The translations under genes were made by a program, and so were the position numbers. A stretch of 40,213 nt of DNA, taken from positions 1 to 40,213 of IMG/VR virus record IMGVR_UViG_3300007352_000032, one strand, 5' to 3'. How positions within the stretch are numbered: the first letter of the stretch is position 1; each line of letters begins with the position of its first letter. Of the stretch, positions 17,439 through 32,837 are shown piece by piece. The DNA comes from a virus. The notes under the pieces are model-generated. The model made no database searches. It was given only the letters and a program-made list of their open reading frames with translations, and was not told the origin of the DNA.

Positions 17439-18175
17439 CAGTAGCCTCGCATATCCAGGGGATCGTTGGTGTTGAGGTTCACGTAGGCCGAATCCGTGAA
17501 GTCGTAGATGTCGAAGGGAGCGGCCCAATGTTGGCCTTCATGGTCCGGCCGCAGGAAGACCTCGAGGGATTCGAAGCCCATCAGGAAGTTTCGGTGCTCC
17601 ATCTCGGCTTGCTGGTCTTGCTCGCCGTAGGTGTGCTCGAAGGCTTTCCAGAGGGCATAGTCCCGAATGACCTCATCGACTTCGGGAGGGCCAATGGCCG
17701 TGTCACCCGAGGCCGAGAGATCGGCCGGGCGCTGGTAGTAGGCGTATTCGAAGGGATAGGTTCCATCGGGCGTGGGGTAGAGTTGGATCCTCCAGGCGCC
17801 CGTGGAGGAGTCGAAGCCTTCTTGCCAGACACGAGTGGGGACTCCTGAGACGCCGGCCGCGTTCGGGAGGAACTCATCGGCCTTGTCTCTCGGGACGAGC
17901 CAGACGTGTTTCCAGCCGTTGTCCTTGTAGAGGCGCGTTCCGGTCTTCCGGAGAGCCCTTGCTTCGGCGACGAGCGAGTAGACCGAAGTTCCGGCCGTGG
18001 TGTTGAAGCTCGTGGTCTGGACGGCCCAAGGCCACCAGGACTGGGCGGTGAGGTGTTTCTGGCCGTCGTTGAGCCAGCCTTCGATCATGAGGTCGAGGGT
18101 GGCGTTCTGGCCGACTTCCAGCCCGAGCTTTCGGAGGACCTCGGTCTTGAGGGTGAGCAGGTTCTTCTTGGCCAT
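17438..18175 (-). CDS. Head-to-tail adaptor (gatekeeper) protein, 245 aa
   Basis: Resembles the common phage adaptor family placed between portal and nozzle: an N-terminal helix (KTEVLRKLGLEVGQNATLDL), then WLNDGQKHLTAQSWWPWAVQ, a beta region, and the characteristic RIQLYPTPDGTYPFEYAYYQ with RPADLSASGDTAIGPPEVDE and a long C-terminal helix. Such proteins form a dodecameric ring below the portal. The gene lies directly upstream of the nozzle gene, the classical order in podoviruses, and starts in TGATG overlap with the preceding gene. The last 30 residues (from AAPFDIYDF) look flexible. Confidence 0.75.
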   Translation of the reverse strand: MAKKNLLTLKTEVLRKLGLEVGQNATLDLMIEGWLNDGQKHLTAQSWWPWAVQTTSFNTTAGTSVYSLVAEARALRKTGTRLYKDNGWKHVWLVPRDKADEFLPNAAGVSGVPTRVWQEGFDSSTGAWRIQLYPTPDGTYPFEYAYYQRPADLSASGDTAIGPPEVDEVIRDYALWKAFEHTYGEQDQQAEMEHRNFLMGFESLEVFLRPDHEGQHWAAPFDIYDFTDSAYVNLNTNDPLDMRGY

Positions 18176-20275: not shown

Positions 20276-20708
20276 GGACTCGCTCCGACTCGAGGATGTT
20301 CGCGACCGCCAAGAGGCGTTCGAGCTTGGTGTACGAGTCTAGGTGCTCGAACCCGGCGATTCGAGACCTCATCTCCCGGACGAGCGATGCCATGGCGGAG
20401 GAGTCGAGCTGCCAGCCTCTTTGGCCGAGCTCCCGCTGGAGGACCCGGTCGAGCCGGGTGACGCTGGATCGGATCTCATCGTCCATGTTGAAGAGAGGGG
20501 CGACCCCGATCTCTTCGGAGAGGTAGGGCTTCCCGGTGGACCGGAAGTAGTCCTCGAGGGGGAGAGCCTCTCCGCCTTGAAGAGAAAGCCCAGCGTCCCG
20601 TGCTGGCTGTTCGCTCGATGGACGATGGACATCGGGCGAAGGCTGAGGGTCGCGCCTGGGATCCCCCCTCCTCGGCGCGATGGACGGGACGCTGGGCATT
20701 TCCATCAT
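20247..20708 (-). CDS. Unknown protein, 153 aa
   Basis: ATG 20708 overlaps the stop of the glycosyltransferase gene as ATGA. The first 50 residues are proline/arginine-rich and look disordered. Residues 50-153 form a compact helical domain (SSVTRLDRVLQRELGQRGW; SYTKLERLLAVANILESERV). There are no cysteines or metal motifs. It lies between the GT4 enzyme and the repeat fibre, so it could assist assembly or modification of the fibre, but nothing in the sequence proves this. The 3' end overlaps the fibre gene by 29 bp. Confidence 0.7.
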   Translation of the reverse strand: MMEMPSVPSIAPRRGDPRRDPQPSPDVHRPSSEQPARDAGLSLQGGEALPLEDYFRSTGKPYLSEEIGVAPLFNMDDEIRSSVTRLDRVLQRELGQRGWQLDSSAMASLVREMRSRIAGFEHLDSYTKLERLLAVANILESERVLGRSTSAQR

Positions 20709-21841
20709 GGCACGAGGAGCCTCGCCTTGGAAGCGGCGACAATGTTCTCGATGGCGTCGTCGTGCTGAGAGGCGTTCTTGGCGATGTCGTGGTGATCCAG
20801 GATGTCCTGCCGGAGCTGTCCGCCGATTCGCCGGCGGAGATCCTCCGATTCGATCAGAGCGGAGAGGCTCTCGACCCAGTCTTCCTTGGAGACGGCGTGG
20901 AAGCCGTTCTCGCCGTGTCGAATGATCTCGTTGTAGGGAAGGCCATAGCCCTTGGTCGCGATGACGGGGAGTCCGCAGAGACCGTACTCCATGACCTTGA
21001 TAGCGCTCTTCGACTCGTTGAAGACCTCCACCTTGAGGGGAGCGACCGCGATGTCCAGCTCCTGGGCCTTGAGCGTCGATGGGTATCCGTCGTAGTGGCT
21101 CGACCCGTTGGAGGTGTGCCAGCGGAACATCGGAACGAGCTTCATGAGCTCGACGTGACAGTAGCCCAAGCTGACGAAGCGGACGTTTTTGTACTTCTGA
21201 GCGATCTCGTGGAACGCTTCGATGAAGTACACGAAGTCGTCGGCGTGGGACGTTGAGCCGGCCCAGCCGATCCGGATCTCGTCCTGGATGATCCTGGGGA
21301 AGAGACTCTTGGTGTCGGGCTCCTGGGAGTCCCAGAAGGAGGCGTCGATGAAGTTGGGGACGACCTCGATGTTCGGGTTGAACTGAGAGTAAGTCCTCCG
21401 GAGCTTTTCCGTAGTGACCGTGAGCCCCGTTGCCCTCGAGATGACGGCTTGGACAGCGAGGAGCTTGGGGCTCGGGATCTTCCGCCCCGTCATGGGATCG
21501 CTACTGACGTAGTAGATGCTCGAGGCCGGGTTGAGCGGGTTGACGTGGAGGTAGTCGTCGTCGAGGTCGATGATGAAGGGCATCTCCCTTCGAGCGAGCT
21601 CATCGCAGAACTGCCGGACGATCTGAGGGTTGTCGATGCGCTGGATCTTGAGGACGTCGTAGCCGTCCAAGAGCCAGTCGAAGTAGCCCTTGAGATTCCC
21701 GTGCTGGACGTCGAGGGGAGGCGGCCCGGTGACTCTCCAGCCGCAGTATTTCCCGGGCTGGGCGATCCGATAGTAGCCGCAGCCTCCGTAGCTCCGGTCT
21801 CGTCTTTGCCCCCAGTCGGTGAAGTTGGCGCTCACGCGCAT
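20705..21841 (-). CDS. GT4-family glycosyltransferase, 378 aa
   Basis: The GT-B fold pattern is clear. The N-terminal half has CGYYRIAQPGKYCGWRVTG and an IDLDDDYLHVNP segment. The C-terminal half has EIRIGWAGSTSHADDFVYF for nucleotide-sugar binding, then ELDIAVAPLKVEVFNESKSA and IKVMEYGLCGLPVIATK. The F-N-E/S-K-S-A-I-K segment with the later E and G residues corresponds to the EX7E-type donor-binding region of GT4 enzymes. The donor and acceptor cannot be read from sequence. The gene is inside the virion operon next to a GT2-like gene. This suggests that a virion protein or host-surface glycan is modified during late infection. Confidence 0.85.
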   Translation of the reverse strand: MRVSANFTDWGQRRDRSYGGCGYYRIAQPGKYCGWRVTGPPPLDVQHGNLKGYFDWLLDGYDVLKIQRIDNPQIVRQFCDELARREMPFIIDLDDDYLHVNPLNPASSIYYVSSDPMTGRKIPSPKLLAVQAVISRATGLTVTTEKLRRTYSQFNPNIEVVPNFIDASFWDSQEPDTKSLFPRIIQDEIRIGWAGSTSHADDFVYFIEAFHEIAQKYKNVRFVSLGYCHVELMKLVPMFRWHTSNGSSHYDGYPSTLKAQELDIAVAPLKVEVFNESKSAIKVMEYGLCGLPVIATKGYGLPYNEIIRHGENGFHAVSKEDWVESLSALIESEDLRRRIGGQLRQDILDHHDIAKNASQHDDAIENIVAASKARLLVP

Positions 21842-22590
21842 CCGATCATCTCCCGGCGGTAGAGGTCATGGCGGAGCTCGTTTTGGACCCGGCCGGTCGT
21901 GAGCGCGTTGTCGATGCACAAGGACCGATAGTAGAGGAGGGCATTCGCGGGCATCGATAGCTCGGGGGCTCGGTACTGGGTATGGAGGTCGGACCAGATC
22001 TGCATCTCGCCTCCGTCTCGGCAGTGCCGGGCCCGGAGGTTGTAGTCGACGACGCCGTAGACCTCGTTCTCGGCCTCGGAGGAGAAGGCATCGAAATACA
22101 TCCCATTGGGATCGATGGCGGCGGGAGAGATGAGCTGGACCTGGCTCGGGAGGTTTGGAATCCAGTTGCAGTAGAGGTCTTTCTTCTCGGAGCTGCCCTC
22201 TATGGCGATTCCCTTCGGGGCGAGCTGGATGATGGCGATCGACCCGACGCGCGCCCTCATGGTCTCGACCCAAGAGAGAAGCCAGCCGTGAGTGAGGAAC
22301 TCGACGTCCGGGTCGAGGCGGAGCAGTGGGGCTCCCAGGTCTCGCCAGAAGATCGAGAAGTTGGTGAGGGTGATCTTGCTCATCCTCTGCTTCACGACGA
22401 TCCGGGCGAAGATGATGTCCTGGAACTCCTTCTCGATCTCCGGGAGCGGCTCGATGCCACCGTAGACGATCTCGAGGGCGATGGGGTACTGCGCCGTCGC
22501 CCTCAAGGAAGCGAGGCAGCGACGCGCCGCCTTCTCCTCGCCGGCGCGAATCGGTAGGACCGCATGGAGAGGAGGGGTCTCAGAGTCCAT
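21832..22590 (-). CDS. GT2-like glycosyltransferase, 252 aa
   Basis: The sequence begins HAVLPIRAGEEKAARRCLAS, the usual GT-A start for glycan-transfer enzymes, and has LLRLDPDVEFLTHGWLLSWV where LDPDVE stands for the DxD-type metal-binding motif. Later segments (ENEVYGVVDYNLRARHCRDG; YRAPELSMPANALLYYRS) fit an acceptor region. It is shorter than many GT2 enzymes (250 against about 300 residues), and no transmembrane segment is present. It overlaps both neighbours by about 10 bp, and together with the GT4 gene forms a two-enzyme pair. The GT2 call is moderate; the DPDVE motif could also mark another nucleotide-sugar family. Confidence 0.65.
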   Translation of the reverse strand: MDSETPPLHAVLPIRAGEEKAARRCLASLRATAQYPIALEIVYGGIEPLPEIEKEFQDIIFARIVVKQRMSKITLTNFSIFWRDLGAPLLRLDPDVEFLTHGWLLSWVETMRARVGSIAIIQLAPKGIAIEGSSEKKDLYCNWIPNLPSQVQLISPAAIDPNGMYFDAFSSEAENEVYGVVDYNLRARHCRDGGEMQIWSDLHTQYRAPELSMPANALLYYRSLCIDNALTTGRVQNELRHDLYRREMIGCA

Positions 22591-22894
22591 GCTTGAGCTC
22601 CTTGAACTTCTTCCGGACCGTGGCGCCGGTCTTGCGCCCGGTCTTGGCCATGATCGGGTTGTCGCGCAGGTATCGGAACCTCTCCACGTCCGCGTTCATC
22701 ATGGCGGGCGAGTAGTAGGAGTCCTTGGCGAGGCGCTCGATGGAGCGTTCTTGGCTCGAGTGGAAGGTCGAGAAGATCCGCCGTGCCCGGGACTGACACG
22801 ACGGACACCTCATCGAGCCTGGCGCCTCGCTGGCCAGGTGGAAGAACCTCTCCAAGAGGTGATGCTGCCGGCATCGGTACTCGAAGAGGGGCAT
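22580..22894 (-). CDS. FmdB-like zinc-ribbon protein, 104 aa
   Basis: Starts at ATG 22894, sharing a base with the previous stop (TGATG). The N-terminus MPLFEYRCRQHHLLERFFHL followed by MRCPSCQSRARRIFSTF is the classic FmdB-type zinc ribbon (usually MPxYEYxCxxCGHxFE..CPxC). Cys8, Cys30 and Cys33 are present, and the usual second cysteine is His11, giving a C-x2-H plus C-x2-C site. The remaining 60 residues are basic and end in KTGRKTGATVRKKFKEL, suggesting nucleic-acid contact. In phages such proteins are found near virion and regulatory genes; a specific role is unknown. Confidence 0.75.
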   Translation of the reverse strand: MPLFEYRCRQHHLLERFFHLASEAPGSMRCPSCQSRARRIFSTFHSSQERSIERLAKDSYYSPAMMNADVERFRYLRDNPIMAKTGRKTGATVRKKFKELKHGL

Positions 22895-23253
22895 CAAGCC
22901 GCTTTCTTGGTGGAGACCGGCTCGCCTCGGAGATCGCGGGCCCAGTTCCTGAGCTTGTTGGTGCCGAAGATGGAGACACCGACCGAGCCTGCCAGGTAGA
23001 GGATCCACTCCTCCCAGGTGATCGGGTCCTTCTCGGGCTTGCCTTCTTCGGCCCTCTTCGCCTTGACGTCTTCGATCCCTTGGCGGAGGCCATCGATCGC
23101 TGCTTGGACTTCGGCGGACTCCTGGGAGGCGATCTCTTGAGCGACGGCCGCGGCCCTCGAGTCGGCCAACCTCTCGAGGTCCTGGAGCGAGTAGTTGACG
23201 GGGGCCATTTCGCAGGAGACGAGGAGGAGTGACAGAAGGGCAAGGGCTCTCAT
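22894..23253 (-). CDS. Putative lipoprotein / spanin-like protein, 119 aa
   Basis: The ATG at 23253 shares a base with the previous stop. An upstream in-frame start would add MQPEEGL. The N-terminus MRALALLSLLLVSCEMAP is a lipoprotein signal with a lipobox-like LVSC, and cysteine 14 is the predicted lipid site. After it comes a heptad-rich helix (residues 20-80: LQDLERLADSRAAAVAQEIA and on) and a second hydrophobic segment (WILYLAGSVGVSIFGTN, about 90-106). A lipidated helical protein with a membrane segment could be an outer-membrane spanin, or a structural or exclusion protein. Nothing next to it identifies a lysis cassette. Confidence 0.65.
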   Translation of the reverse strand: MRALALLSLLLVSCEMAPVNYSLQDLERLADSRAAAVAQEIASQESAEVQAAIDGLRQGIEDVKAKRAEEGKPEKDPITWEEWILYLAGSVGVSIFGTNKLRNWARDLRGEPVSTKKAA

Positions 23254-23435
23254 CAGACCTTCTTCTGGCTGCAAGGGTTGTTCGGGGCGTGCTTGTACTC
23301 GTCGCCCGTCTTGGTGCCCGTGTTCTGGAGCTCGGGGCGATCGATGTCACCCGGAACGTTCTGCTGCTCGCGCCAGAACTTCGGGAAGCCTTCGTAGGAC
23401 TGGTACTCGGGCGTCCGAATGCTTTGCTTTTCCAT
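23253..23435 (-). CDS. Small unknown protein, 60 aa
   Basis: The ATG at 23435 follows GGAG by about six bases. An alternative TTG at 23477 lies inside the hairpin terminator and is rejected. The protein is polar with many tyrosine, glutamine and proline residues, one cysteine near the end and no predicted membrane segment. It lies directly downstream of the capsid terminator, so it is expressed by readthrough or from a weak internal start. Small proteins at this position are often head decoration or capsid-associated proteins, but no evidence identifies one here. Confidence 0.55.
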   Translation of the reverse strand: MEKQSIRTPEYQSYEGFPKFWREQQNVPGDIDRPELQNTGTKTGDEYKHAPNNPCSQKKV

Positions 23436-23457
23436 GGGAGGCTCCGGAAGTGTTAAA

Positions 23458-23492
23458 GGCTCCCGGGGAGGTGTCAACCTCTCCCGGGAGCC
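23458..23492 (-). terminator. Terminator downstream of the capsid gene
   Basis: GGCTCCCGGGGAGGT (23458-23472) and ACCTCTCCCGGGAGCC (23477-23492) form a near-perfect stem with a four-base loop. On the minus strand it is followed by TTTAACACTT, a weak T-run. It would end most transcripts after the major capsid gene and so help keep capsid levels high against the genes beyond. Confidence 0.75.
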
Positions 23493-23517
23493 AGGAGGAG
23501 TCCATGACGACTTCAGG

Positions 23518-24507
23518 TTAGCCAGAAAGGGTCGCGCCCGCCACGATCGTCCGAATCCAGTCCGGATTCAAGACGCGGTTGGCGAAGACCTGTTTCCAGC
23601 CGACGGTCCGGTACATGTTGAGCGGGTTCGAGGTGTCCTGGGGCCCGGACTCCTTGACGATGATCTTGCGACCATCGAGCTCGGTGGCGCCGTAGGCCTC
23701 TTGCCCGAAGATCGCGCAAGGATGGACGGCTCCGTCGCCGTTGCCGGAGATGGTTCCGGAGACGTCGAAGGTGATCGGGCTGGTGTCCTCGACGAACCTC
23801 ACACCGAACCACTTGCCGATCTCACCTTGGAAGATGCGCTCCGCGCCGGCGTACTGCTGCGTCGGCATCCAGCCGATTCGGCCGGCGGCCGTCGCGGCGG
23901 TGTCGCCGGTCAGGTCGAACTCGGACTCCGGCGAGATGATGGCGACCCAGTAGTTTCCTTCGAACCGGATCGCCTTGGCCTTGCGGAGGCGATAGACGCC
24001 TTGCCGGACCAAGGAGGTGTCCAGGGTCGAGGTGACGTTACCGGCGGAGAAGTGCTGGCCCGTGGGGTAGATGTAGTTGGCCGTGACCTCCGAGGCGGTC
24101 AAGGTGTCCGCCTGGAGGATGTAATCGACCGTCTCCCCCGCCTGGATACCCAGGAGGGCCGAGGTCTCCGAGACCTTGGGATCGATGGACGTCAGATCGA
24201 GGAAGCTCGAGATCGCGACGTAATCGCCCCACTCGCGCGCGGTGGCCGATAGGAGAGATGCCGTCAGCGTCTTGCCCGTCGCCGGCGTCGTGCCTTCGGT
24301 CAGAGCCGTCGTGGCACGAGCGAAGGTCGAGTAGCGCGTGAACGTGATCGAATCGCCCGAGTAGCGCGGGAGAGGCCGCTTCTGGGCGAACTGCCACCAC
24401 GCGAGGCGCGGGATGGCGTACTTGAGGAACCGGCGGTCGTAGTGCTCATACGCGATGAGGTTGGCACCGCCGCCGCTCCTTGTGTTGATTCCACCGGGAA
24501 GGCCCAT
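23518..24507 (-). CDS. Major capsid protein, N4-gp56 family, 329 aa
   Basis: Matches by eye the N4-gp56 capsid pattern: YDRRFLKYAIPRLAWWQFA, then QKRPLPRYSGDSITFTRYS, ATTALTEGTTPATGKTLTAS and a REWGDYVAISSFLDLT segment. Later parts read LLGIQAGETVDYILQADTL and, near the C-terminus, TVGWKQVFANRVLNPDWIRT. Length is somewhat short for the family (N4 gp56 is about 400 residues) but typical of its podovirus relatives. The protein has an HK97-type fold by family knowledge and forms the icosahedral shell. It follows the scaffold gene by 39 bp with AAGGAG ahead of the ATG, and it is followed by a hairpin terminator. Confidence 0.9.
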   Translation of the reverse strand: MGLPGGINTRSGGGANLIAYEHYDRRFLKYAIPRLAWWQFAQKRPLPRYSGDSITFTRYSTFARATTALTEGTTPATGKTLTASLLSATAREWGDYVAISSFLDLTSIDPKVSETSALLGIQAGETVDYILQADTLTASEVTANYIYPTGQHFSAGNVTSTLDTSLVRQGVYRLRKAKAIRFEGNYWVAIISPESEFDLTGDTAATAAGRIGWMPTQQYAGAERIFQGEIGKWFGVRFVEDTSPITFDVSGTISGNGDGAVHPCAIFGQEAYGATELDGRKIIVKESGPQDTSNPLNMYRTVGWKQVFANRVLNPDWIRTIVAGATLSG

Positions 24508-24546
24508 GCTGGAGGCTCCTTGTCAGGAGTCTCGAACCAAGGCTTC

Positions 24547-25581
24547 TCAGAAGGAGCGCTTCCGATTGAGCCTCATGGACTCTGGGAGACGTCCACCGAG
24601 TTGGTTCGCGACTTCGAGATCGAGCTCCTCGTCGCTCATGGCGCGAATTCTCTCCGGCGTCAGCTCGACAGGACCCTTTTGAGTGGGGCCTCTCGAGGTC
24701 CGTCCTCCCTCCACGTAGGCAGCCTTCCGTTTGGTGGCGGCTTGGCGCTTCTCCTCTTCGACGAGGGGCACTCGATCTCGGAGGTAGAGGACTCCCGCGA
24801 TCTCCGCGGCTTCCTTGTAGCAACCGGCCTCGACGAGAGCGGAGACCGCCGGGTGACTCTTGGCGTACCCCGCGATATCGTTGAACTGCTCGGTCGGAAT
24901 CTGGTGCTGCAAGGCGACCTCGGTGAACGACCGGGTCAGTCCTTCGAGACGATCGTGCATGGCGCGGGCGCGTTCGCTCGCCTCCCGCATCGCGGCCTCT
25001 CGTTCGGACCGGGCCCTGGTGTCGATCATCTCCCGGATGACCTTGACGGGGTTCTCGTGGAATCTCTCCAGGATCTCCTCCTCGGTCGGAGGGGGAGTGG
25101 AGGGAGGAGTCGGTTGAGCTGCGAGCCGCTCGAGGAGCTGCTCGTAGGTCTCGAGTCTTTGACGCTGCTCGGCGAGCTCTCGCGCTTGGCGGGAGGACTC
25201 TCGAGTTGTTTCCTGGTAAGCCCGCTCGAGATCTTGAGGCGAGCGGTACTTGCCAGCCCATAGCGTGGACTCTTCCGTCTCCTCTGAGGTTGGCCCGGCT
25301 TCGGAGGGGTCCTCGTCGGACGTTGGCTCCTGAGCTTCGGGGGCTCTTTGGTTCTGGAGAGATTCTCCGGCTTCGGAGGGGTCCTCGTCGGACGTTGGCT
25401 CCGATCCGGAAGAGCTGTAGCCGGCGTAGCGGTCCACCCACTCGTCGGTCATGCTCTCGGGGGGAGTCGAGCTCCCCGTGAAGGCGGTGTCGAACGCTCT
25501 CTCAGCGATCCTCTGAGGTGAGGAGGTAGGAGGAGCTGTCAACATCTCGTCCGGGACTGGAGGAGGGGTCTGCTTCGGCAT
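24547..25581 (-). CDS. Capsid scaffolding protein, 344 aa
   Basis: Low-complexity acidic and proline-rich N-terminus with a repeated EPTSDEDPSEAG unit (residues about 61-100), then LWAGKYRSPQDLERAYQE, the signature of many phage scaffolds. A long coiled coil follows (residues 120-215: ESSRQARELAEQRQRLETY, onward to the charged helix REAAMREASERARAMHDRLE). The C-terminal half is helical and basic at the end. This scaffold-type layout and its place between portal and capsid genes are standard. It would guide procapsid assembly and is expected to leave the mature head. It overlaps the upstream gene by 80 bp. Confidence 0.85.
   Translation of the reverse strand: MPKQTPPPVPDEMLTAPPTSSPQRIAERAFDTAFTGSSTPPESMTDEWVDRYAGYSSSGSEPTSDEDPSEAGESLQNQRAPEAQEPTSDEDPSEAGPTSEETEESTLWAGKYRSPQDLERAYQETTRESSRQARELAEQRQRLETYEQLLERLAAQPTPPSTPPPTEEEILERFHENPVKVIREMIDTRARSEREAAMREASERARAMHDRLEGLTRSFTEVALQHQIPTEQFNDIAGYAKSHPAVSALVEAGCYKEAAEIAGVLYLRDRVPLVEEEKRQAATKRKAAYVEGGRTSRGPTQKGPVELTPERIRAMSDEELDLEVANQLGGRLPESMRLNRKRSF
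25295..25402 (-). repeat. 36-bp exact direct repeat in the scaffold gene
   Basis: The same 36 bases, beginning CCGGCTTCGGAGG and ending GTTGGCTCC, occur at 25295-25330 and 25367-25402. They code for EPTSDEDPSEAG in each case and flank a short linker. This looks like a recent in-frame duplication that could shrink or grow by recombination. Confidence 0.85.
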
Positions 25582-25915
25582 TCCTGAATTCCTTGGTGAT
25601 CTCCAGATAGAGCTCGGTGAGAGCGTCCTTCTGATCCACGAAGACGGCTTCGAGGTCGAGAACGGCTTGCGCTCCCTTGGCTCTCTGGATCATGTCCCAA
25701 GCCTTCTCCTTGGAGTCTGCGAGAAAGAGCAGCCGGGTGTCAAGAGAGGCCAGCCTCTCGATTTCCTCTTTCAGGAAGGCCCACCCTCGGCTGACGTAGG
25801 TCTCGCCGATCTCGTGGAGGATGCCTCGAGCCTTCTCGATCTCCTTGAGGGCCTCATGCGGCTTGCCTTGGCTCTGCAAGGCCAAGACGTGTTCGACCCA
25901 GGGGTCTCTCTGCAT
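25502..25915 (-). CDS. Small helical protein between portal and scaffold, 137 aa
   Basis: The ATG at 25915 shares a base with the portal stop (TGATG). The protein is largely helical and charged (LKEIEKARGILHEIGETYVS; LTELYLEITKEFRNAE), with a polar serine-rich tail. There are no metal motifs. Genes at this place often encode a small head or portal-associated protein, and that is the most likely role. No family was recognised. It overlaps the scaffold start by 80 bp, so its last 27 codons are read in two frames. Confidence 0.7.
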   Translation of the reverse strand: MQRDPWVEHVLALQSQGKPHEALKEIEKARGILHEIGETYVSRGWAFLKEEIERLASLDTRLLFLADSKEKAWDMIQRAKGAQAVLDLEAVFVDQKDALTELYLEITKEFRNAEADPSSSPGRDVDSSSYLLTSEDR

Positions 25916-28089
25916 CAGATGGCCCGGAGCTGCTGTACGCCGCTACCGATCGGGAGCCCGGCGTTGGAGCCTCCCTGCATCGGAGAGGACTGCCCGGCAT
26001 AGCCGCCGGCGCCTATGGGCGGGGCGCCTCCGGCTGGGACGGCTCCGAACATGGAGGCTGGGTTCGCGAAGTTTGTGTTCCGGCCCATGAACTTCTGGCG
26101 CTTCTGGTCTTCGTGCTGCTGGATGTGGGCGGCGAGCTGCGAGCGGAGTTGAGGGATCGTGTAGAACTGCTCGGTGTGCATGGCGATGTGAGCCTCGTCG
26201 TCGTCTCCCGGCCTGACGGTGAGCGGCTCGCCCCGGAGGGCCCGGTAGAGCTCCTCGGCGGGGTCCTGGGTGAGGTAGGCGAGGTCCGAGTATTGATCGA
26301 CGTCGAGGAGGAGCCTCTCGCCACGGCGCACCTTGAAGGTGCGGAACATCTCGGAGACGACCTCTCGGACATCGATGGTCTGCCGGAGGACCGGGTCCAA
26401 GAGGATCTTGTCGAAGAGGAGGAGAAGACGCTGCTGGGCCTGGAAGTCGTTAGCAGTGTCGTCGTCGCCGAGGAGGGTGAAGTCGACGTGGGCATCGATG
26501 TCCCGCGACTGGACCATCCGCCAGGTGTGGCCTTCCTTCCCCTTGATGCGGATGACCTGGGGGATGTCGAGGAACTGCTTGTTGAGGGAGTGCTGCTGGG
26601 TGAGGGCCCTGCGCAGGAAGCCCTGGATCGACTGGAGGATGATCCCGAAGCGGATGTTGGCCTGGGCAGTGCCTTGGGTCACTCCGGTCGCCGTGTTGGA
26701 GCGGGAAGCCGCGGAGCCGCCCCGGATGAAGTCCGTGGTCCCGGTCACGTTCTGGATGCGGCTCTCGAGCCAGGCTCTTTGTCCGATGGCGCTCGGGACG
26801 ACGTCGTCCACCTCGAGCTGCTTGACCTGGGAGATGTCTTCGACCGGGATGGTCCCGAAGGCTCGGAACCGGATCGAGTTGAAGGGGACTCTGGCGCCTC
26901 GCCCCACGAGGAACATCTTTTGGATGGCGTAGGTGAGGTTGTCCTGGACCATGTTGTTCACGGCCTGGGACGCGATGGTGTGAGGCTCCATCGATTCGAG
27001 GGCGCCGATGCCGTAGAACTCGAGCTCGTCTTTGATGTAGCAGCATTCCACGAACGGCTTCCGTCCGTGGGAATAGGGGTTCTCGATATTGCGAAGGACG
27101 ACCTTCTCGTCGGCGATCGTGATGAGCCGATTGGGGATCCGTCGTCCTTCCTCGGTGTAATAGGAGCCGTAGTATTCCCAGACCTTGACCATGGGGGAAT
27201 ACTTGTCTTGGAAGTCGAAGGGGGACTGCCGGCCGGATCGCTTCAACATGTAGTCGCGCCCGTAGCCGCCGTAGGCTGATCCGGAGCGGTAGCGATCGGC
27301 CTGGGAGTAATCTCCCGTGTCCCTCATGTGCTGGAGCTGATCGGTGTTCTGGTAGACGCCTTGCTCGTCGAGCTCTTTGAGGATCGTCTCCGGGACCCAG
27401 TGCTCCGCGATGCACCAGTCCGCTTCTTCGATCGATCGGGCGTGGGGCTCGAGCCAGAAGTTGTAGATGGGGACGTGGACGTATCGGGGCCCATCGAAGG
27501 ACTGATACTTCCGGATCTTGCCGGTGACGTTTCCGGTGGGGATTCCGTTCTGGTCTCTGTCTTGGACCTCGACGTAGTCTTCGACGAAGTCCTCTTCCCA
27601 GATGATCTTGGTGATTCCTGTCCCGAACTTCACGACGGACCGGAAGAACCGGGTCAAGTAGTCCCGGATATCGATCTGGGAGTCCCACTGGTAATCGAGG
27701 AGCTGCTGGATGAGGTCGACCTTGAGGTCGGCTCCCGGGTTCTCCGGGTTGATCGAGAATGGCGGGTCGACGGAGAAAATGGCATTGATGATCCGGGGGA
27801 GGATCGTCTCGACGACGACGAAGGGCTCATCGGACGGCAAGTTGCTGCCATCACGGGTCCTTTTGACGACGAGACGGTACTGGGACTCCCAGCGCGCCCA
27901 TTTCTCCTCGTAGGGCCTGCGGTAGTCGTCGGCGACGTGCCATCGGTTCGTGACGATGCTGAGCGCTTTCTGATCGTTGAACCGGGCAGCGGGGACCGTG
28001 CGCTCGGTGTCGGAGATGCCTGGGCCGTGGATATCGAGGCCGCGCGCCTCCTCGATGGAGATCTGCTCGCCTGGGAGTAGCGTCTTCAT
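25915..28089 (-). CDS. Portal protein, 724 aa
   Basis: The start is ATG 28089; an extension to 28137 would run through the terminator hairpin. The large dodecameric portal pattern includes WHVADDYRRPYEEKWARWES near the N-terminus, DEPFVVVETILPRIINAIFS, IDIRDYLTRFFRSVVKFGTG and KPFVECCYIKDELEFYGIGA. It continues with ESMEPHTIASQAVNNMVQDN, which belongs to the stem helix region, and GTTDFIRGGSAASRSNTATG. The C-terminus ends in a glycine/proline-rich low-complexity tail (about 660-724). Portals drive DNA packaging and exit. The gene follows the small 76-residue gene in the transcript but is separated from it by a terminator. Confidence 0.85.
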   Translation of the reverse strand: MKTLLPGEQISIEEARGLDIHGPGISDTERTVPAARFNDQKALSIVTNRWHVADDYRRPYEEKWARWESQYRLVVKRTRDGSNLPSDEPFVVVETILPRIINAIFSVDPPFSINPENPGADLKVDLIQQLLDYQWDSQIDIRDYLTRFFRSVVKFGTGITKIIWEEDFVEDYVEVQDRDQNGIPTGNVTGKIRKYQSFDGPRYVHVPIYNFWLEPHARSIEEADWCIAEHWVPETILKELDEQGVYQNTDQLQHMRDTGDYSQADRYRSGSAYGGYGRDYMLKRSGRQSPFDFQDKYSPMVKVWEYYGSYYTEEGRRIPNRLITIADEKVVLRNIENPYSHGRKPFVECCYIKDELEFYGIGALESMEPHTIASQAVNNMVQDNLTYAIQKMFLVGRGARVPFNSIRFRAFGTIPVEDISQVKQLEVDDVVPSAIGQRAWLESRIQNVTGTTDFIRGGSAASRSNTATGVTQGTAQANIRFGIILQSIQGFLRRALTQQHSLNKQFLDIPQVIRIKGKEGHTWRMVQSRDIDAHVDFTLLGDDDTANDFQAQQRLLLLFDKILLDPVLRQTIDVREVVSEMFRTFKVRRGERLLLDVDQYSDLAYLTQDPAEELYRALRGEPLTVRPGDDDEAHIAMHTEQFYTIPQLRSQLAAHIQQHEDQKRQKFMGRNTNFANPASMFGAVPAGGAPPIGAGGYAGQSSPMQGGSNAGLPIGSGVQQLRAI

Positions 28090-28099
28090 GGTCCCGCCC

Positions 28100-28154
28100 A
28101 AAGTGAAAAGAGGCCCTCCGCCTCGCATCCGCACCATGTTTCGGCGGAGGGCCT
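28100..28154 (-). terminator. Terminator between the 76-aa gene and the portal gene
   Basis: AGGCCCTCCGCC (28111-28122) and GGCGGAGGGCCT (28143-28154) form a perfect 12-bp stem around a 20-base loop. On the minus strand the stem is followed by CTTTTCACTTT (28110-28100). It should attenuate transcription of the portal gene from upstream promoters. Confidence 0.8.
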
Positions 28155-28165
28155 GAGGAAGAGAA

Positions 28166-28396
28166 TCAGCAGCGGGTCTCGGCCTTGCCGCGATCCATGA
28201 AGCACGGAGCCTCGAGCATCTTGTAGCGATCGTCGGAGTAGGTGGCCGACTTGTGGGCGGCCCCAGACGGGCCCGAGGCCGGCGTCATCTCGTAGGGGCT
28301 GTTGTTGTTGTACATGTCACCGCCGGGCGCGGCGGAGCTGCCCATGTTGGCCTTGACCATGGTGTTGCCCGGCTCGTAATCCTTGCGACCGTTCAT
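28166..28396 (-). CDS. Small unknown protein, 76 aa
   Basis: ATG 28396 with GGAG about eight bases upstream. The protein is rich in methionine, asparagine, serine and tyrosine (MYNNNSPYEMTPASGPSGAA) and has two cysteines near the end, with no transmembrane segment. Its low-complexity composition, its separate leader of 142 bp with a palindrome and hairpin, and its own terminator all suggest a distinctly regulated, perhaps abundant, virion or early-late protein. No family was recognised. Confidence 0.65.
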   Translation of the reverse strand: MNGRKDYEPGNTMVKANMGSSAAPGGDMYNNNSPYEMTPASGPSGAAHKSATYSDDRYKMLEAPCFMDRGKAETRC

Positions 28397-28410
28397 TCAG
28401 GGTCTCCTTG

Positions 28411-28459
28411 TCAAGCGCTTGAAGGAAGGAACCCTCCTCACGACCTGTTTCGGACAGGT
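28411..28459. promoter_or_regulatory. Palindrome and small hairpin in the leader of the 76-aa gene
   Basis: TCAAGCGCTTGA (28411-28422) is a perfect 12-bp palindrome 15 bp upstream of the start codon. ACCTGTTTCGGACAGGT (28443-28459) forms a 6-bp stem with a five-base loop. They could be an operator and an RNA structure. No good -35/-10 pair was seen in the 142-bp leader. Confidence 0.4.
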
Positions 28460-28538
28460 GTCCCCTCAGATTCGAGGTGATCTTGGGCCCGCTTCAAAAG
28501 AAGTCGTCGAGCTGATTGCTCCTCAGACGACGTGAGGA

Positions 28539-29093
28539 TTAGGGTTTGGAAGTGAAGCTATCACTGGTCTGCCTCTCGGTCCAGCCTCCACGGAGGGCAT
28601 CTTCGACCCAGAGGGGATGTCCATCGAGCTGCCGGTAGTGGAAGGTCAGGAAGGTCAGCTTCTGGTGCTTGAGATAGTGGTCCCTCTGCTGGGCCTTCAT
28701 CGTGACCACGTCGAGGAGAGGGGTTGGGCTCTCTTGGCTCCACCCGCCGAGGCGGAGCTCGTCCTTGGCGCCGACCCACTTGATCCTCTTCATGGACTGG
28801 ACGATCTCGTGCCGATCGCGCTCCATCCAGATGAAGAGGACCTCGTCGTCCCCTGGGAATCCCCCAAGCTGGTAGGACATTCCTGGGGCGTGGAGGACTT
28901 GTTTCTTCCCGCGGAGGCGTTTCCGGTAGAGGTCTCGGTCACGGATTCCGATCTCGGTCTCTGGGACGTGCTCGAAGCCCGTCGAGTGGGCGATCATCTT
29001 CGAGGCGATGTTGGTGCCGCATCGCTGGCACCCAGAGACGACGATGTTCGCGAAGTTGGGGCCAAGCAGGGCGAAGAGGCTGTGGATGTTCAT
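28539..29093 (-). CDS. Sulfotransferase-like P-loop protein, 184 aa
   Basis: ATG 29093 overlaps the terminase stop as ATGA. Residues 17-31 (IVVSGCQRCGTNIAS) look like the 5'-phosphosulfate-binding loop of sulfotransferases, with the R/G/T residues in place of the usual S/GT. The later FIWMERDRHEIVQSMKRIKW resembles the 3'-phosphate-binding R...S motif. FHYRQLDGHPLWVEDAL near the C-terminus recalls the HPLWV end of small phage sulfotransferase-like proteins. Sulfotransferases move sulfate from PAPS to a sugar or protein. Here the acceptor is unknown, but glycosyltransferase genes occur in the same operon. It could also be another P-loop kinase-like enzyme. Confidence 0.6.
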   Translation of the reverse strand: MNIHSLFALLGPNFANIVVSGCQRCGTNIASKMIAHSTGFEHVPETEIGIRDRDLYRKRLRGKKQVLHAPGMSYQLGGFPGDDEVLFIWMERDRHEIVQSMKRIKWVGAKDELRLGGWSQESPTPLLDVVTMKAQQRDHYLKHQKLTFLTFHYRQLDGHPLWVEDALRGGWTERQTSDSFTSKP

Positions 29094-30826
29094 GCGTACC
29101 CGGCGTAGTAGGGAGAGTCGCCACCTGAGCTCTCGATGGGGCTGTCCTCTTTGGGCTCGAAGCCCCAGAGCTGGAACTCCTCGTGCTGGGCGAGCTCGAG
29201 GGAGGAAGGCTCGAGGAGGAGAGGGATCCCGAGCTTCCGGTCTTCGGCGAAGGCGTCCGCGAGAGCGTCGGGGACGTCGTTCTTCTGCTTCTTCCCGGGA
29301 CGGTAGAACAGGAACTCGTGGATGAAGTCCTGGTGGAAGTCCGGGTGCAGCTTGAAGATGTCCGAGTCGAAGACGAGGTTGCCGTCCCTCATGTGAGGCT
29401 GGAGCCTCCTCACCCGTGAGTCCTTGGTCTCGAGGGATCGGCCTTCGATCTTGATGAGGGAGAAGTCGAGCCCTTGGCGGTGCATTCTCTGCTCGATCAA
29501 GGTCTTGTAGACCTCGTTGTGGGTCGCTTCTTCCAGGGTGATTCCGACGGGGCGGTACTTCCGGGCGAGGTCGAAGAGGTTGTCGAGGAAGACCTCGGGG
29601 GTCCAGAGCCCGGCGGCGTAGTCTCGGACGACGCGGCGCTTGGAGGGCTCTACGTCGATGACGATGATGACGGAGCGGCAGCCTTCGTCCTTGTCCGAGA
29701 CGGCGGTGTCGGTGACCAGGTAGCGGCGTGTGACGGTGGAGATGAGCTCGTGCCGCAGGAAGCGGAAGTGCTCCTTGGTGAAGATCTGCCGGGAGGCCGG
29801 GAGGCACTCGTTGAGGTACTGGGAGGTGAAGGAAACGACGTCCATCGAGTGGTAATGCTCGACGAGCACCGATCGTGGCAGGGTCTTGGGGAAGAGATAC
29901 CTCGAGTCGTCTTCGGGGAAGAAGATGTTCCCCTCGGCATCGGCGCGGAGGGTCCCGGAGACGGACGACTCGATGAGGATCTCGTAGGACTTGTGCTTCT
30001 GGTTCTTCCGGATGATGTCTCCGTAGAGGTCCTCCTCGTTGTAGCGGGTGCCGTAGACGATCATGACGCCTCCGGCCTCGAGGAGAGGGGAGAGCATTCG
30101 GAAGACCTCTTTGCACTTCTCGATCTGCTCAGCGGTCCCGGAGTTCTTCAGGGTGACGAGGTCGTCGGCGATGATGAGATCGTAGTGACCGCCGGTGACC
30201 TGGACGTCGATGCCGGCGCTCTTGCAGGTGGGCTCCTTGATGGACTTGGCGGAGCGCACCGAGAGGGTGTAGCTCTCGTCATTCCAGGGGTTCCCGGCGA
30301 AAGAGCCGTAGAGCTCCACGAATAGCTCGGACTCCATCACCTCCCGTTGGGTCTTCATGGCCTCTTTGGCGAGGCTCCGAGACTCGGAGATGATGAGGAC
30401 CCTGAGGTTCCGTCCTCGGACGGGTCGTCCCTTCCGGTTCAGGATGCCGGGGATCTGAGGAAGGGTGTAGAGCCAGACGGGGAGGGCCTGGGCTCCGAGA
30501 AGGGTCTTCCTCGTCCCTCGTGGGCGCTCGACGTGGATCTTGCGTGGGGCTGAGGGGTCGAGGAAGGGTCTGAGGAGGAGGTCTACGTACTTCCGGTCCT
30601 CTTTCTCGACGACGATGCCATCGAGCCCGAAGACGTCCTCGCAGAAGGCGAAGAAGTCCTCTTGGTACCGCTCCAGGAGGGAGTCCTTCGCTTCCTGGAC
30701 CTCGAGGTCATAGTAGCGCTTGACGAGATCGGGAGGGGCCTTCTCGAGCTCTTCAAGGGTGAGGATCGGCTGGTCGGGATTGGGCTTTTGCGCTCGCTTC
30801 GAAAGCTTCAGCAAAAGGTCGGACAT
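29090..30826 (-). CDS. Large terminase subunit (packaging ATPase/nuclease), 578 aa
   Basis: The ATPase part has an atypical Walker A, RPRGTRKT (residues 101-108), a Walker B of YDLIIADD (215-222) and a coupling motif VYGTRYNEEDLYG (257-269). The nuclease part has VTDTAVSDKDEG around Asp373, EEATHNEVYK around Glu432-433, and NDVPDALADAF with Asp517 and Asp520, consistent with an RNase H-like fold. The enzyme pumps DNA into the head and cuts it. The gene precedes the portal, as is usual. It has no canonical GK[ST] P-loop, and the R-x-x-G-x-x-K-T form is seen in many terminases. Confidence 0.85.
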   Translation of the reverse strand: MSDLLLKLSKRAQKPNPDQPILTLEELEKAPPDLVKRYYDLEVQEAKDSLLERYQEDFFAFCEDVFGLDGIVVEKEDRKYVDLLLRPFLDPSAPRKIHVERPRGTRKTLLGAQALPVWLYTLPQIPGILNRKGRPVRGRNLRVLIISESRSLAKEAMKTQREVMESELFVELYGSFAGNPWNDESYTLSVRSAKSIKEPTCKSAGIDVQVTGGHYDLIIADDLVTLKNSGTAEQIEKCKEVFRMLSPLLEAGGVMIVYGTRYNEEDLYGDIIRKNQKHKSYEILIESSVSGTLRADAEGNIFFPEDDSRYLFPKTLPRSVLVEHYHSMDVVSFTSQYLNECLPASRQIFTKEHFRFLRHELISTVTRRYLVTDTAVSDKDEGCRSVIIVIDVEPSKRRVVRDYAAGLWTPEVFLDNLFDLARKYRPVGITLEEATHNEVYKTLIEQRMHRQGLDFSLIKIEGRSLETKDSRVRRLQPHMRDGNLVFDSDIFKLHPDFHQDFIHEFLFYRPGKKQKNDVPDALADAFAEDRKLGIPLLLEPSSLELAQHEEFQLWGFEPKEDSPIESSGGDSPYYAGYA

Positions 30827-30980
30827 GCTCTCGGTTCCCAGCCGACATTCTGGAGACGGTGATCTTGGCGTGCTCTGGATTCTGGACTCTTTCGAGGAGG
30901 ACGTCGAGGCTCCTCAGGAAGTGAGCCGTCTCGATGTCCGTCTCGAAGGAGATGGAGAAGGTCACGCTGAGGACGTTCAC
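30753..30980 (-). CDS. Small unknown protein, 75 aa, GTG start
   Basis: The frame is open further upstream but only as arginine-rich nonsense over the preceding gene. The GTG at 30980, in GTGA overlap with that gene's stop, gives a plausible 75-residue protein beginning VNVLSVTFSISFETDIETAH, with alternating beta strand and helix. It overlaps the terminase start by 74 bp. No family was recognised. A small co-translated partner of the terminase is possible. Confidence 0.55.
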   Translation of the reverse strand: MNVLSVTFSISFETDIETAHFLRSLDVLLERVQNPEHAKITVSRMSAGNREHVRPFAEAFEASAKAQSRPADPHP

Positions 30981-31396
30981 CCTTCCTGGGTCCTCGAGTT
31001 TCGGATCGCCTCGATGACGGCCTCTTTGGTGGAGAGGTCCTTCTGGGACTGGTGGATCTCGACGACCTGTTTCTCGGCCGCGACACCCAAGAGTTGTTCG
31101 AGAGCCTTCAGAGCGCGATCGAGTTGGGCCTGGTTCGTGATGCCCTGGAGGGCTTCGAGGCGCATGAGGATCGTGTCTCTCAGGTGGAGCTCTTGCTCTT
31201 GATTGAGCTTCTCGGCTCTCGCCTTGATGGATTCGATCTGGGGCTGGATCCTCTTGAGGATGTTTCGGATCCTCGGGAGCCTCCGATTGCCCCATTTCGG
31301 GGCGGAAGCCATCTGGTCGGTATTCTGGTGGAATTCGACGTCAGGGCCGATCTCTTCGACGCGACGCCGGATCTTCTCTCTGGTCTCGAAGTCCAT
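30977..31396 (-). CDS. Candidate small terminase subunit, 139 aa
   Basis: A highly helical, charged protein with two long predicted helices (RRLPRIRNILKRIQPQIESI; ALQGITNQAQLDRALKALEQ). Its place just upstream of the large terminase and its length fit a small terminase subunit, which forms a ring that recognises packaging sites. I do not see the N-terminal helix-turn-helix that many small terminases have; the first 45 residues are basic and could instead bind DNA. The call is therefore mainly positional. It overlaps the upstream gene by 56 bp. Confidence 0.5.
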   Translation of the reverse strand: MDFETREKIRRRVEEIGPDVEFHQNTDQMASAPKWGNRRLPRIRNILKRIQPQIESIKARAEKLNQEQELHLRDTILMRLEALQGITNQAQLDRALKALEQLLGVAAEKQVVEIHQSQKDLSTKEAVIEAIRNSRTQEG

Positions 31397-31694
31397 GTGA
31401 GCCTCTCAGGATCTCGCCGATGTGTTCCGACCCGGACCGGAAGCCTCTGGGTAGCATCGATTCCAGGTACCTCTCGTCGTCGTCTTGAAAATGCACTGAG
31501 GAAGGGTCCCTCTTCAAGAGCCGGCAGAGTGTGATGAAGTAGGAGGCGGGTCTCCGGCCGACCCGGAACGACCTGGCCCTTGCCAGGCGGAAGAGGTGAT
31601 CGTGCCATTCGCACCTATGGAGACGGGTCAGTCGGTAGCCGTGCCGGATGGCCTCGTCGTCACTCTCCAGGTCCTGGATTCGGATCCACCCCAA
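31341..31694 (-). CDS. Unknown basic protein, 117 aa, TTG start
   Basis: Two TTG codons lie near the start. The second (31694) has GGGAGG about eight bases upstream and is preferred over the one at 31700, which is only two bases from that site. The protein is arginine- and histidine-rich with a WIRIQDLESDDEAIRHGYRL start and a helical middle. Single cysteines are scattered but do not form a CxxC site. Function is unknown. It sits between a methyltransferase-like gene and the candidate small terminase. Confidence 0.6.
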   Translation of the reverse strand: MGWIRIQDLESDDEAIRHGYRLTRLHRCEWHDHLFRLARARSFRVGRRPASYFITLCRLLKRDPSSVHFQDDDERYLESMLPRGFRSGSEHIGEILRGSHGLRDQREDPASRRRDRP

Positions 31695-32271
31695 GGCCAA
31701 GTCCTCCCCTCGAGACCTGCTCGTCCGTGATTTCGATGATCCGGTGCGGCTCGCCGTTTTCTGGACCGTTCACCCAGCAAGCGAGCCCATTGCACAATCT
31801 GTATACATACTTAGTCCCTGGGAGCTCGTCAACGGCCTCCACGAGCTTTGGGAATCTCTCGTGGTAGTCGTGGAAGAGGAAGAGGCCTCCTTTCCGGAGG
31901 TGGGGCATCCAAACCGCGATGTCACCTTGGACAGTTTCGTTGTGCTTGGCGTCGTGGTGGATGATGTCGGCTTCGAAGGGATAGAGGGAATCCAGGGCGA
32001 CGTGGCGCAGATCTTTGACGAAGAGCTCTACGTTGTCGAACTCCAGTTGGAACTCTTTGACGAGGCGGAGGCGCTCTCTCCTCTGCTCGTAGCTGTCGAC
32101 ACCGATGACGAGGGCGGACGGCCAGAGGGAGGCGAAGGAGAAGAGGGAGAATCCCTGGTCGACGCCGAGGTCGACGATGGTCGAGGGCTCGTCCTCGAGG
32201 AATCGATCCGCCAGGTACTTCACGACGGGGGTGAGGCCTTTCCAGGCCGAGGGAACTTCACGCCAGGTCAT
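31660..32271 (-). CDS. SAM-dependent methyltransferase-like protein, 203 aa
   Basis: The ATG at 32271 overlaps the upstream stop as ATGA; a longer extension is nonsense. STIVDLGVDQGFSLFSFASL is motif I of class I methyltransferases (DxGxxxG), followed by VIGVDSYEQRRERLRLVKEF, the acidic end of the second strand, and later FEADIIHHDAKHNETVQGDI and KGGLFLFHDYHERFPK. The pattern fits the Methyltransf_24-type group that modifies sugars or small molecules. The C-terminal 15 residues are glycine/proline-rich. It forms a pair with the next methyltransferase gene upstream. The acceptor is unknown. Confidence 0.7.
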   Translation of the reverse strand: MTWREVPSAWKGLTPVVKYLADRFLEDEPSTIVDLGVDQGFSLFSFASLWPSALVIGVDSYEQRRERLRLVKEFQLEFDNVELFVKDLRHVALDSLYPFEADIIHHDAKHNETVQGDIAVWMPHLRKGGLFLFHDYHERFPKLVEAVDELPGTKYVYRLCNGLACWVNGPENGEPHRIIEITDEQVSRGGLGLGVDPNPGPGE

Positions 32272-32837
32272 GTGGTCCTCTCCATCGGTTCGAAGCAAAA
32301 GAACGTGGCCCGCCTCTCGATGGGCTCTTGAGCGTTGAGAGACCATCCGGCTTTCTCGAACTGACCCTTCCACCAAGGCCAGGGCTGGACGGTGAGATGA
32401 TAGCGCTCTGCATCACCAGCCCATCCATGGTCTTGAAGGTGAGAAACGGTCCCGATGAAGAACTGGCATCCTGTTTTTAGAGCCCCTTCGAGCCACTGGT
32501 GGATGAGTGGCGTCTCGACATGCTCCAAGACGTCCCATGCGGTCAATACGTCGCAGCGGAGGTGAGAGGGCCCTGATACGGATGGGAGGACCTCGAATAG
32601 GTCTCCGAGGTCTCCGAAGTCGTCGAGGTCGGCTCCTTTTGCGTCGAAGCCCGAAGCGATGAGGAGACGGACGAATTGTCCTCCCCCACAGCCGACATCG
32701 AGGATACGGAGTGGTTTTGGAAGATGTGGTTCATGAAGGCAGAGCTGCTCGAAGAACCGATCGAGGTTCAGAATCCCGTGGTTCCCCGTCGTCCAATAAG
32801 AGGACGGGAGCGCCCTGTACCGCTCGAGCTCACCCAT
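32268..32837 (-). CDS. Class I SAM-dependent methyltransferase, 189 aa
   Basis: RILDVGCGGGQFVRLLIASG is a textbook motif I, with AKGADLDDF as the acidic second-strand end. DVLTAWDVLEHVETPLIHQW is the DVLEHV motif of Methyltransf_23-type enzymes, and FFIGTVSHLQDHGWAGDAER continues the fold. Short length (189 residues) and the context suggest a small-molecule or sugar methyltransferase rather than a DNA methylase; no NPPY or DPPY motif is present. It lies six bases after the stop of the zinc-containing protein gene. Confidence 0.8.
   Translation of the reverse strand: MGELERYRALPSSYWTTGNHGILNLDRFFEQLCLHEPHLPKPLRILDVGCGGGQFVRLLIASGFDAKGADLDDFGDLGDLFEVLPSVSGPSHLRCDVLTAWDVLEHVETPLIHQWLEGALKTGCQFFIGTVSHLQDHGWAGDAERYHLTVQPWPWWKGQFEKAGWSLNAQEPIERRATFFCFEPMERTT

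What the first reader, a model, noticed from the sequence alone, without database searches (positions are those of the whole stretch)
20705..32837. Surface-modification enzymes embedded in the virion operon
A GT4 and a GT2-like glycosyltransferase, a sulfotransferase-like P-loop protein, two methyltransferases and a GNAT-like protein (13073-13633) are interleaved with packaging and head genes. Late expression with virion genes suggests that a virion protein, fibre or host-surface glycan is glycosylated, sulfated or methylated.
Basis: inference. Interest (0 to 1): 0.55.

Follow-up and report, generated by a model that had tools for sequence, protein, structure and literature searches.

The report
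Sugar-decorating enzymes in a phage head operon
This podovirus-like phage carries a sugar-transferring enzyme and helper enzymes between its capsid and tail genes, as do many of its uncultivated relatives, some with a whole sugar-making pathway there, which suggests that such phages may coat their own particles with sugars.

Summary
One GT4 glycosyltransferase (20705-21841) and two methyltransferases (31660-32271, 32268-32837) are confirmed by curated models. A sulfotransferase (28539-29093) is probable: Pfam below cutoff, but both PAPS-loop motifs are present. The 'GT2-like' (21832-22590) and 'GNAT-like' (13073-13633) calls found no support. All the genes look genuine and lie in one late strand; ST, GT4 and the MTs overlap neighbouring genes start-to-stop.

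Relatives give the larger result. A GenBank podovirus (MW202801.1) has GT, methyltransferase, PhyH, NodB, Fe/S-oxidoreductase and GT4 genes in the same MCP-to-tail slot. A scan by MCP alone recovered 22 dereplicated MCP clusters. Of the 14 with at least two downstream genes, 12 carry sugar or GT genes right after the MCP, often a full nucleotide-sugar pathway ending in GT4. The window shares with four relatives the order GT4, ~150-aa protein, S/T-rich fibre-like protein. No lipid-carrier GT, flippase, GtrA or thymidylate-synthase gene was found.

Best reading: cytosolic glycosylation (and tailoring) of a virion protein, probably fibre or capsid; about 0.55. Modifying host surface glycans remains possible. 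No acceptor is shown. Virion glycosylation is known in mycobacteriophages; head-operon biosynthesis islands are the new variant.

The parts
32268..32837 (-). SAM methyltransferase (Methyltransf_23), upstream of TerL
   Evidence: PF13489 4e-11, 43.4 bits over cutoff 27; GC3 0.66
31660..32271 (-). SAM methyltransferase (Methyltransf_24), ATG overlaps the stop of the previous gene by 4 nt
   Evidence: PF13578 1e-11, 46.1 bits over cutoff 26.3; overlap
29090..30826 (-). terminase large subunit
   Evidence: phrog_38 3.7e-59
28539..29093 (-). probable PAPS sulfotransferase, 4-nt overlap with TerL
   Evidence: PF13469 E 0.002 below cutoff; double motif 0 of 2368 ORFs and 0 of 20000 shuffles; no relative in phages or viral contigs
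25915..28137 (-). portal protein (SU10-like)
   Evidence: PF23899 4.2e-39
24547..25581 (-). scaffold-like protein (by position only)
   Evidence: no PHROG hit; lies between portal and MCP
23518..24507 (-). major capsid protein
   Evidence: phrog_1357 3.1e-53
23458..23492 (-). strong stem-loop just after the MCP stop, terminator or attenuator-like
   Evidence: RNA fold of 23440-23520, -39.1 kcal/mol, z -3.84
22580..22897 (-). FmdB-type zinc ribbon protein; a zinc-ribbon-like ORF also follows the MCP in the nearest MCP relative L121
   Evidence: PF09723 3e-9 over cutoff; L121 ORF 10037-10363 judged by eye
   Evidence: no family, relative or profile support; genuine gene by GC3 0.86
20705..21841 (-). 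GT4 glycosyltransferase
   Evidence: PF13692 7e-12 over cutoff, phrog_7162 1e-38; K278 and E285 invariant in the seven aligned sequences
20247..20708 (-). 153-aa protein of the small family that follows GT4 in L021, L034, L035, L055
   Evidence: hhalign score 24.7, 0 of 100 shuffles, 1 of 200 control ORFs (itself the ORF after GT4 in L021)
18914..20275 (-). S/T-rich repetitive fibre-like protein, candidate acceptor
   Evidence: 22% S+T, 97th percentile of ORFs of 200 aa or more; fibre nature inferred from repeats and position
17438..18175 (-). gp11-like head-tail adaptor
   Evidence: phrog_399 4.8e-8
13073..13633 (-).
   Evidence: no significant hit

Best explanation
The genes are the phage's own decoration set, expressed with the virion. 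In the infected cell's cytosol the GT4 enzyme moves a sugar from a host nucleotide-sugar onto a virion protein. The most likely acceptor is the S/T-rich fibre-like protein encoded two genes downstream (18914-20275), or else the capsid. The two methyltransferases and the probable sulfotransferase then cap or charge the glycan. In relatives the same slot carries more glycosyltransferases and a whole nucleotide-sugar pathway, so that the sugar itself is phage-made. Likely benefits are altered adhesion, shielding or particle stability. Shown: the genes, their place, GT4 and MT family membership, and the recurrence of sugar and GT genes next to MCP. Inferred: the acceptor, that the enzymes act on one glycan, and the benefit.
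For: GT4 and two MTs over curated cutoffs, coupled to structural genes by start-stop overlaps. MW202801.1 has MCP, small ORF, Fe/S oxidoreductase, GT, PhyH, MT, NodB, GT4, then tail genes. Scanning by MCP alone: 12 of 14 dereplicated MCP clusters with at least two downstream ORFs of 100 aa or more carry sugar or GT genes there; 7 of 9 if clusters already found through GT4 are dropped. L055 has Epimerase, DegT aminotransferase, GFO/IDH, hexapeptide transferase, GT2+MT and UDP-GlcNAc 2-epimerase between MCP and GT4. In the tree, head-operon podovirus GT4s cluster (3 changes against 16.9 shuffled). Block GT4, ~150 aa protein, S/T-rich fibre-like protein in the window, L021, L034, L035, L055. No WecA, Wzx or GtrA in 20 records; no thymidylate synthase in 24; no transmembrane segments by a crude hydropathy scan in the labelled cassette enzymes printed. 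Precedent: capsid and tail-tube glycosylation by mycobacteriophage GTs (passages in PMC12363180, PMC12619734).
Against: No acceptor or modification is shown. The GT4 family also occurs away from head genes: 45 of 69 tree rows were labelled 'other', e.g. beside replication genes in phAPEC8 or near queuine tRNA-ribosyltransferase, exonuclease and SbcC genes. The window GT4 is on a long branch and unplaced. The window has no nucleotide-sugar genes of its own that I recognised. Its MCP lacks the S/T-rich tail seen in the cassette clade. Its fibre-like protein does not align with those of relatives. Isolated MCP relatives lack the enzymes. L119 and L120 in the MCP scan also lack them, and of three clusters with only one downstream ORF, one has a sugar gene.
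Confidence: 0.55

Rival explanations
1. The enzymes remodel the host cell's surface glycan (O-antigen or capsule) late in infection, to block superinfection or to free progeny from receptors, as phage-borne nucleotide-sugar genes are usually read.
For: Phage-borne O-antigen nucleotide-sugar genes are read this way in print (PMC12911398 passages). Sulfo- and methyl-groups are common on surface glycans (recalled).
Against: No WecA-type, Wzx or GtrA gene in 20 records; no tyrosine integrase in the window or in 10 of the 12 other records tested, so lysogenic conversion is unlikely in most; genes sit next to MCP and before tail genes across lineages. Host export machinery could still be used.
Confidence: 0.22
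2. The glycosyltransferases act on phage DNA bases (hypermodification).
For: The same GT4 family occurs beside replication genes in phAPEC8 and near a queuine tRNA-ribosyltransferase gene in L071.
Against: No thymidylate-synthase-family gene in 24 records including the window, the usual source of hydroxymethyl bases (recalled); cassettes sit in the head operon and include amino-sugar-type pathway genes. Other routes to modified bases were not tested.
Confidence: 0.06
3. The genes are unrelated cargo gathered at a tolerant insertion point in the head operon, with no shared target.
For: Composition varies widely between relatives and insertion points differ (before TerL, TerL-portal, portal-MCP, MCP-tail). 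Some isolates lack cargo. Two window enzymes are unassigned.
Against: Cargo is strongly biased to sugar and GT genes and recurs as ordered pathways; the GT4-small-fibre block is conserved.
Confidence: 0.15

Closest known systems
Virion glycosylation of mycobacteriophages Che8, Corndog and Myrna (Freeman et al. 2023, cited in PMC12363180 and PMC12619734; the paper itself was not held)
   Same: Phage-encoded glycosyltransferases; proposed acceptors are capsid or tail proteins
   Different: There the modification is shown. [quoted passage not shown] The window adds methyltransferases and a probable sulfotransferase; relatives add whole nucleotide-sugar pathways
Podoviridae sp. ctQWt234, MW202801.1
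   Same: 40 kb podovirus; GT, MT and GT4 genes between MCP and tail; acetyltransferase after tail genes
   Different: Also has Fe/S-oxidoreductase, PhyH and NodB genes; no sulfotransferase annotated; has an integrase; GT4 25% identical
Chlorovirus and mimivirus self-glycosylation (recalled, not looked up)
   Same: A virus that encodes its own glycosyltransferases and nucleotide-sugar enzymes for its coat
   Different: Eukaryotic giant viruses; no homology tested here
Phage O-antigen nucleotide-sugar genes read as host-modifying (PMC12911398)
   Same: Same enzyme classes (epimerases, dehydratases)
   Different: Here the genes lie in the head operon and no lipid-carrier export genes were found

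Membership tests
GT4 glycosyltransferases | Curated Pfam score for the C-terminal GT-B domain | tested here: met
   PF13692 46.2 bits against 27; PF00534 41.1 against 26.4
GT4 glycosyltransferases | Conserved donor-site Lys and Glu | tested here: met
   K278 and E285 invariant in the seven aligned sequences; their role is recalled
GT2 glycosyltransferases | GT-A/GT2 profile similarity | tested here: not met
   no Pfam hit at E 10; hhalign no better than shuffles
PAPS sulfotransferases | Curated Pfam score | tested here: not met
   18.9 bits against 27
PAPS sulfotransferases | 5'-PSB and 3'-PB motifs in order | tested here: inconclusive
   both present, 0 of 20000 shuffles, but the motif definitions are recalled and were loosened to include the form seen here
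SAM-dependent methyltransferases | Curated Pfam score | tested here: met
   two proteins, PF13489 and PF13578
GNAT acetyltransferases | GNAT profile | tested here: not met
   no hit at E 10
Phage virion glycosylation | Phage-encoded glycosyltransferase | tested here: met
   GT4
Phage virion glycosylation | Glycan on a virion protein | not testable with these tools
   needs mass spectrometry
Phage virion glycosylation | Homology to Che8 gp110 or Corndog gp38 | not tested
   no mycobacteriophage named in the part of the tblastn list shown; 7 organism names and 102 of 132 records were not listed
Serotype-conversion (gtr) or lipid-linked export cluster | GtrA flippase, WecA-type or Wzx protein | tested here: not met
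   0 of 20 records each
DNA base hypermodification | Thymidylate-synthase-family base enzyme | tested here: not met
   0 of 24 records

The most novel reading that the evidence does not exclude
A wide group of uncultivated podoviruses encodes, inside the head operon, a self-contained pathway that makes an amino-sugar nucleotide and attaches the glycan to its own capsid or fibre. This would be a phage counterpart of the self-glycosylating giant viruses. The window phage is a stripped-down version that borrows the sugar from the host and adds sulfate and methyl groups.
Probability: 0.4. Interest if true: 0.8.

Novelty: new variant of a known kind. Interest (0 to 1): 0.58.

Why it matters
Phage nucleotide-sugar genes are commonly labelled auxiliary metabolic genes that change the host surface. 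Their repeated place next to the major capsid gene, without the lipid-carrier export genes searched for, makes virion glycosylation a testable alternative for a large environmental group. If true, phage particles would carry custom glycans that affect adsorption, stability and recognition, and the conserved GT4, small protein and fibre block names a candidate acceptor to test first.

Tried and rejected
AF2 models of the GT2-like protein (pLDDT 35) and the sulfotransferase-like protein (pLDDT 31), single sequences, were unusable, so no fold search was run. Relatives of the GT2-like and ST-like proteins: none in viral contigs; GT2-like none in genome contigs; ST-like none in phages. PDB searches for GT2-like, ST-like and GNAT-like gave nothing significant. 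GT2-like against ten phage GT2s was no better than shuffles.

I considered the capsid C terminus as the acceptor. In the clade with nucleotide-sugar cassettes, 15 MCP rows have 23-47% S/T in the last 30 residues, the other 25 rows 7-27%, the window 13%. This is confounded by descent and absent in the window, so it is kept as a lead only. I considered a Wbp-type UDP-diacetamido-hexuronic acid pathway (recalled) for L055. NCBIfam puts only the 2-epimerase over its cutoff (WecB, 211.3 against 210.15), so the product is left unassigned.

Limits of counts: class labels come from phmmer chains at E 1e-5 with seeds picked from these loci, and the SDR label is broad. One search includes redundant contigs. 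Five MCP clusters had no usable downstream ORF, and one MCP fragment (L112) fell under the length limit and was left out. The ORF picker missed the GT4 of L005, which searches show. In one search the 'headpodo' label for L017, L021, L023 and L038 rests on gene order, not on an MCP found in the fetched stretch.
Full report
WHAT THE WINDOW IS. The window is one 40,213-base virus record without tRNA genes. Its late genes run on the minus strand: TerL 29090-30826, portal 25915-28137, MCP 23518-24507, gp11-like adaptor 17438-18175 (phrog_399 4.8e-8), a 1215-aa LamG-like tail protein and very large ejection-type proteins (names by position and eye). It is far from sequenced phages: the portal finds 5 GenBank phage records at 20-22% identity, the MCP 57 records, all under 60% identity.

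CHECKING THE SIX ENZYMES. The GT4 at 20705-21841 passes three Pfam cutoffs and matches phrog_7162. The methyltransferases at 32268-32837 and 31660-32271 pass their cutoffs. The sulfotransferase-like ORF has a sub-threshold Pfam hit (E 0.002) and two ordered motifs that no other ORF among 2368 and none of 20000 shuffles shows. The GT2-like and GNAT-like ORFs have no support from Pfam, PHROGs or PDB sequences, and none from the comparisons made for each. All have coding-like third-position GC (0.66-0.89). MT23-MT24, TerL-ST, Zn ribbon-GT2-like-GT4 and GT4-20247 overlap by 4-11 nt, so the enzymes are probably translated with virion genes.

RELATIVES OF THE GT4. GT4 relatives occur in 132 GenBank phage records. 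The best by E-value among those listed is MW202801.1, a 40 kb podovirus with MCP, a small ORF, an Fe/S oxidoreductase, GT, PhyH, methyltransferase, NodB and GT4, then tail genes. In Streptomyces phage KimJongPhill a UDP-glucose dehydrogenase, a methyltransferase and the GT4 stand directly before the terminase. In Arthrobacter phage Mimi and phAPEC8 the gene stands elsewhere. A scan with a seven-member alignment found 189 relatives in viral contigs, of which 80 were kept. Many of the closest carry the GT4 after the MCP and before tail genes, and so do HK97-type phages of another MCP kind, where it follows the MCP almost directly. In 93 upstream ORFs of capsid-like size, the commonest families were nucleotide-sugar epimerase (13) and this MCP family (11).

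TEST WITHOUT THE GT4. To avoid choosing contigs by the enzyme, I searched by MCP only, with an alignment drawn from five of these phages: 30 loci, 22 clusters at 90% identity. Fourteen clusters have two or more downstream ORFs of at least 100 aa; 12 carry sugar or GT genes there, and 7 of the 9 that the GT4 search had not already found. Exceptions are L119 and L120; of three clusters with one ORF, one has a sugar gene; five are uninformative. Over 31 loci, 104 of 161 downstream ORFs against 4 of 162 upstream ones are of these classes (contigs partly redundant). A typical cassette is an SDR, aminotransferase, GFO/IDH oxidoreductase, hexapeptide transferase, GT2 fused to a methyltransferase, UDP-GlcNAc 2-epimerase and GT4. 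NCBIfam names only the 2-epimerase at its cutoff, so the exact sugar is not assigned. The nearest MCP relative of the window, L121, has a 758-aa fusion with GT-like and methyltransferase domains between portal and MCP and a zinc-ribbon-like ORF after the MCP, as in the window (by eye).

LINK TO A FIBRE. In L034, L035, L055 and L021 the GT4 is followed by a protein of about 150-190 aa and then an S/T-rich fibre-like protein. The window has the same order: GT4, 153 aa (20247-20708), 453 aa with 22% S/T (18914-20275). The window's 153-aa protein matches the small family by hhalign with score 24.7. None of 100 shuffles reach that; of 200 control ORFs one does, and it is the ORF after GT4 in L021. 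The fibre-like proteins themselves do not align. Other relatives (L006, L012, L014, L018, L023, L029) go straight from GT4 to the gp11-like gene.

RIVALS. Lipid-linked export genes (PF00953, PF01943, PF04138) were found in 0 of 20 records each and thymidylate synthase in 0 of 24, with controls ringing. Tyrosine integrase was found in 2 of 13 records, not in the window. Records may be incomplete, and the host could supply export. The GT4 family is not diagnostic by itself: 45 of 69 tree rows were not labelled as head-operon members, although one such group also stands near a TerL and sugar genes (L066). The window's GT4 is a long, unplaced branch.

LITERATURE. Glycosylation of capsid and tail-tube proteins by phage GTs is established for mycobacteriophages according to passages in PMC12363180 and PMC12619734; the primary paper was not held. 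Phage nucleotide-sugar genes are read as host-modifying in PMC12911398 (passages). I found no paper describing sugar pathways inside a podovirus head operon in the listings of searches; that library holds open-licence papers only.

VERDICT. The window finding is real but smaller than stated: one certain glycosyltransferase, two methyltransferases, a probable sulfotransferase. Set among relatives it belongs to a recurrent arrangement that most likely serves virion glycosylation. No modification has been shown.

Noticed in passing
window 23458-23492 (-): Strong terminator-like stem-loop right after the MCP stop (fold z -3.84); it may lower expression of the downstream enzymes relative to MCP.
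   Followed up: partly
window 22894-23253 (-): Small ORF starting with a lipoprotein-like signal (LLLVSCEM) and ending in a hydrophobic stretch, between MCP and zinc ribbon; could be a unimolecular spanin-like lysis protein. Judged by eye.
   Followed up: no
L121 5550-7826: 758-aa fusion with GT-like and methyltransferase domains between portal and MCP in the nearest MCP relative.
   Followed up: partly
MCP C termini of L014, L018, L034, L035, L055, L094, L098, L101, L103, L104, L106-L110: S/T-rich C-terminal tails in the MCP clade with nucleotide-sugar cassettes (23-47% of the last 30 residues); possible glycan acceptor, confounded by descent.
   Followed up: partly
L014 11635-15049: After the gp11-like gene, a second set of enzymes: GT9-like (PF01075 5.8e-5), a sulfotransferase-like ORF by eye and a second GT4.
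   Followed up: partly
window 1405-3540 (-): 711-aa protein with no PHROG hit and of unknown role.
   Followed up: no
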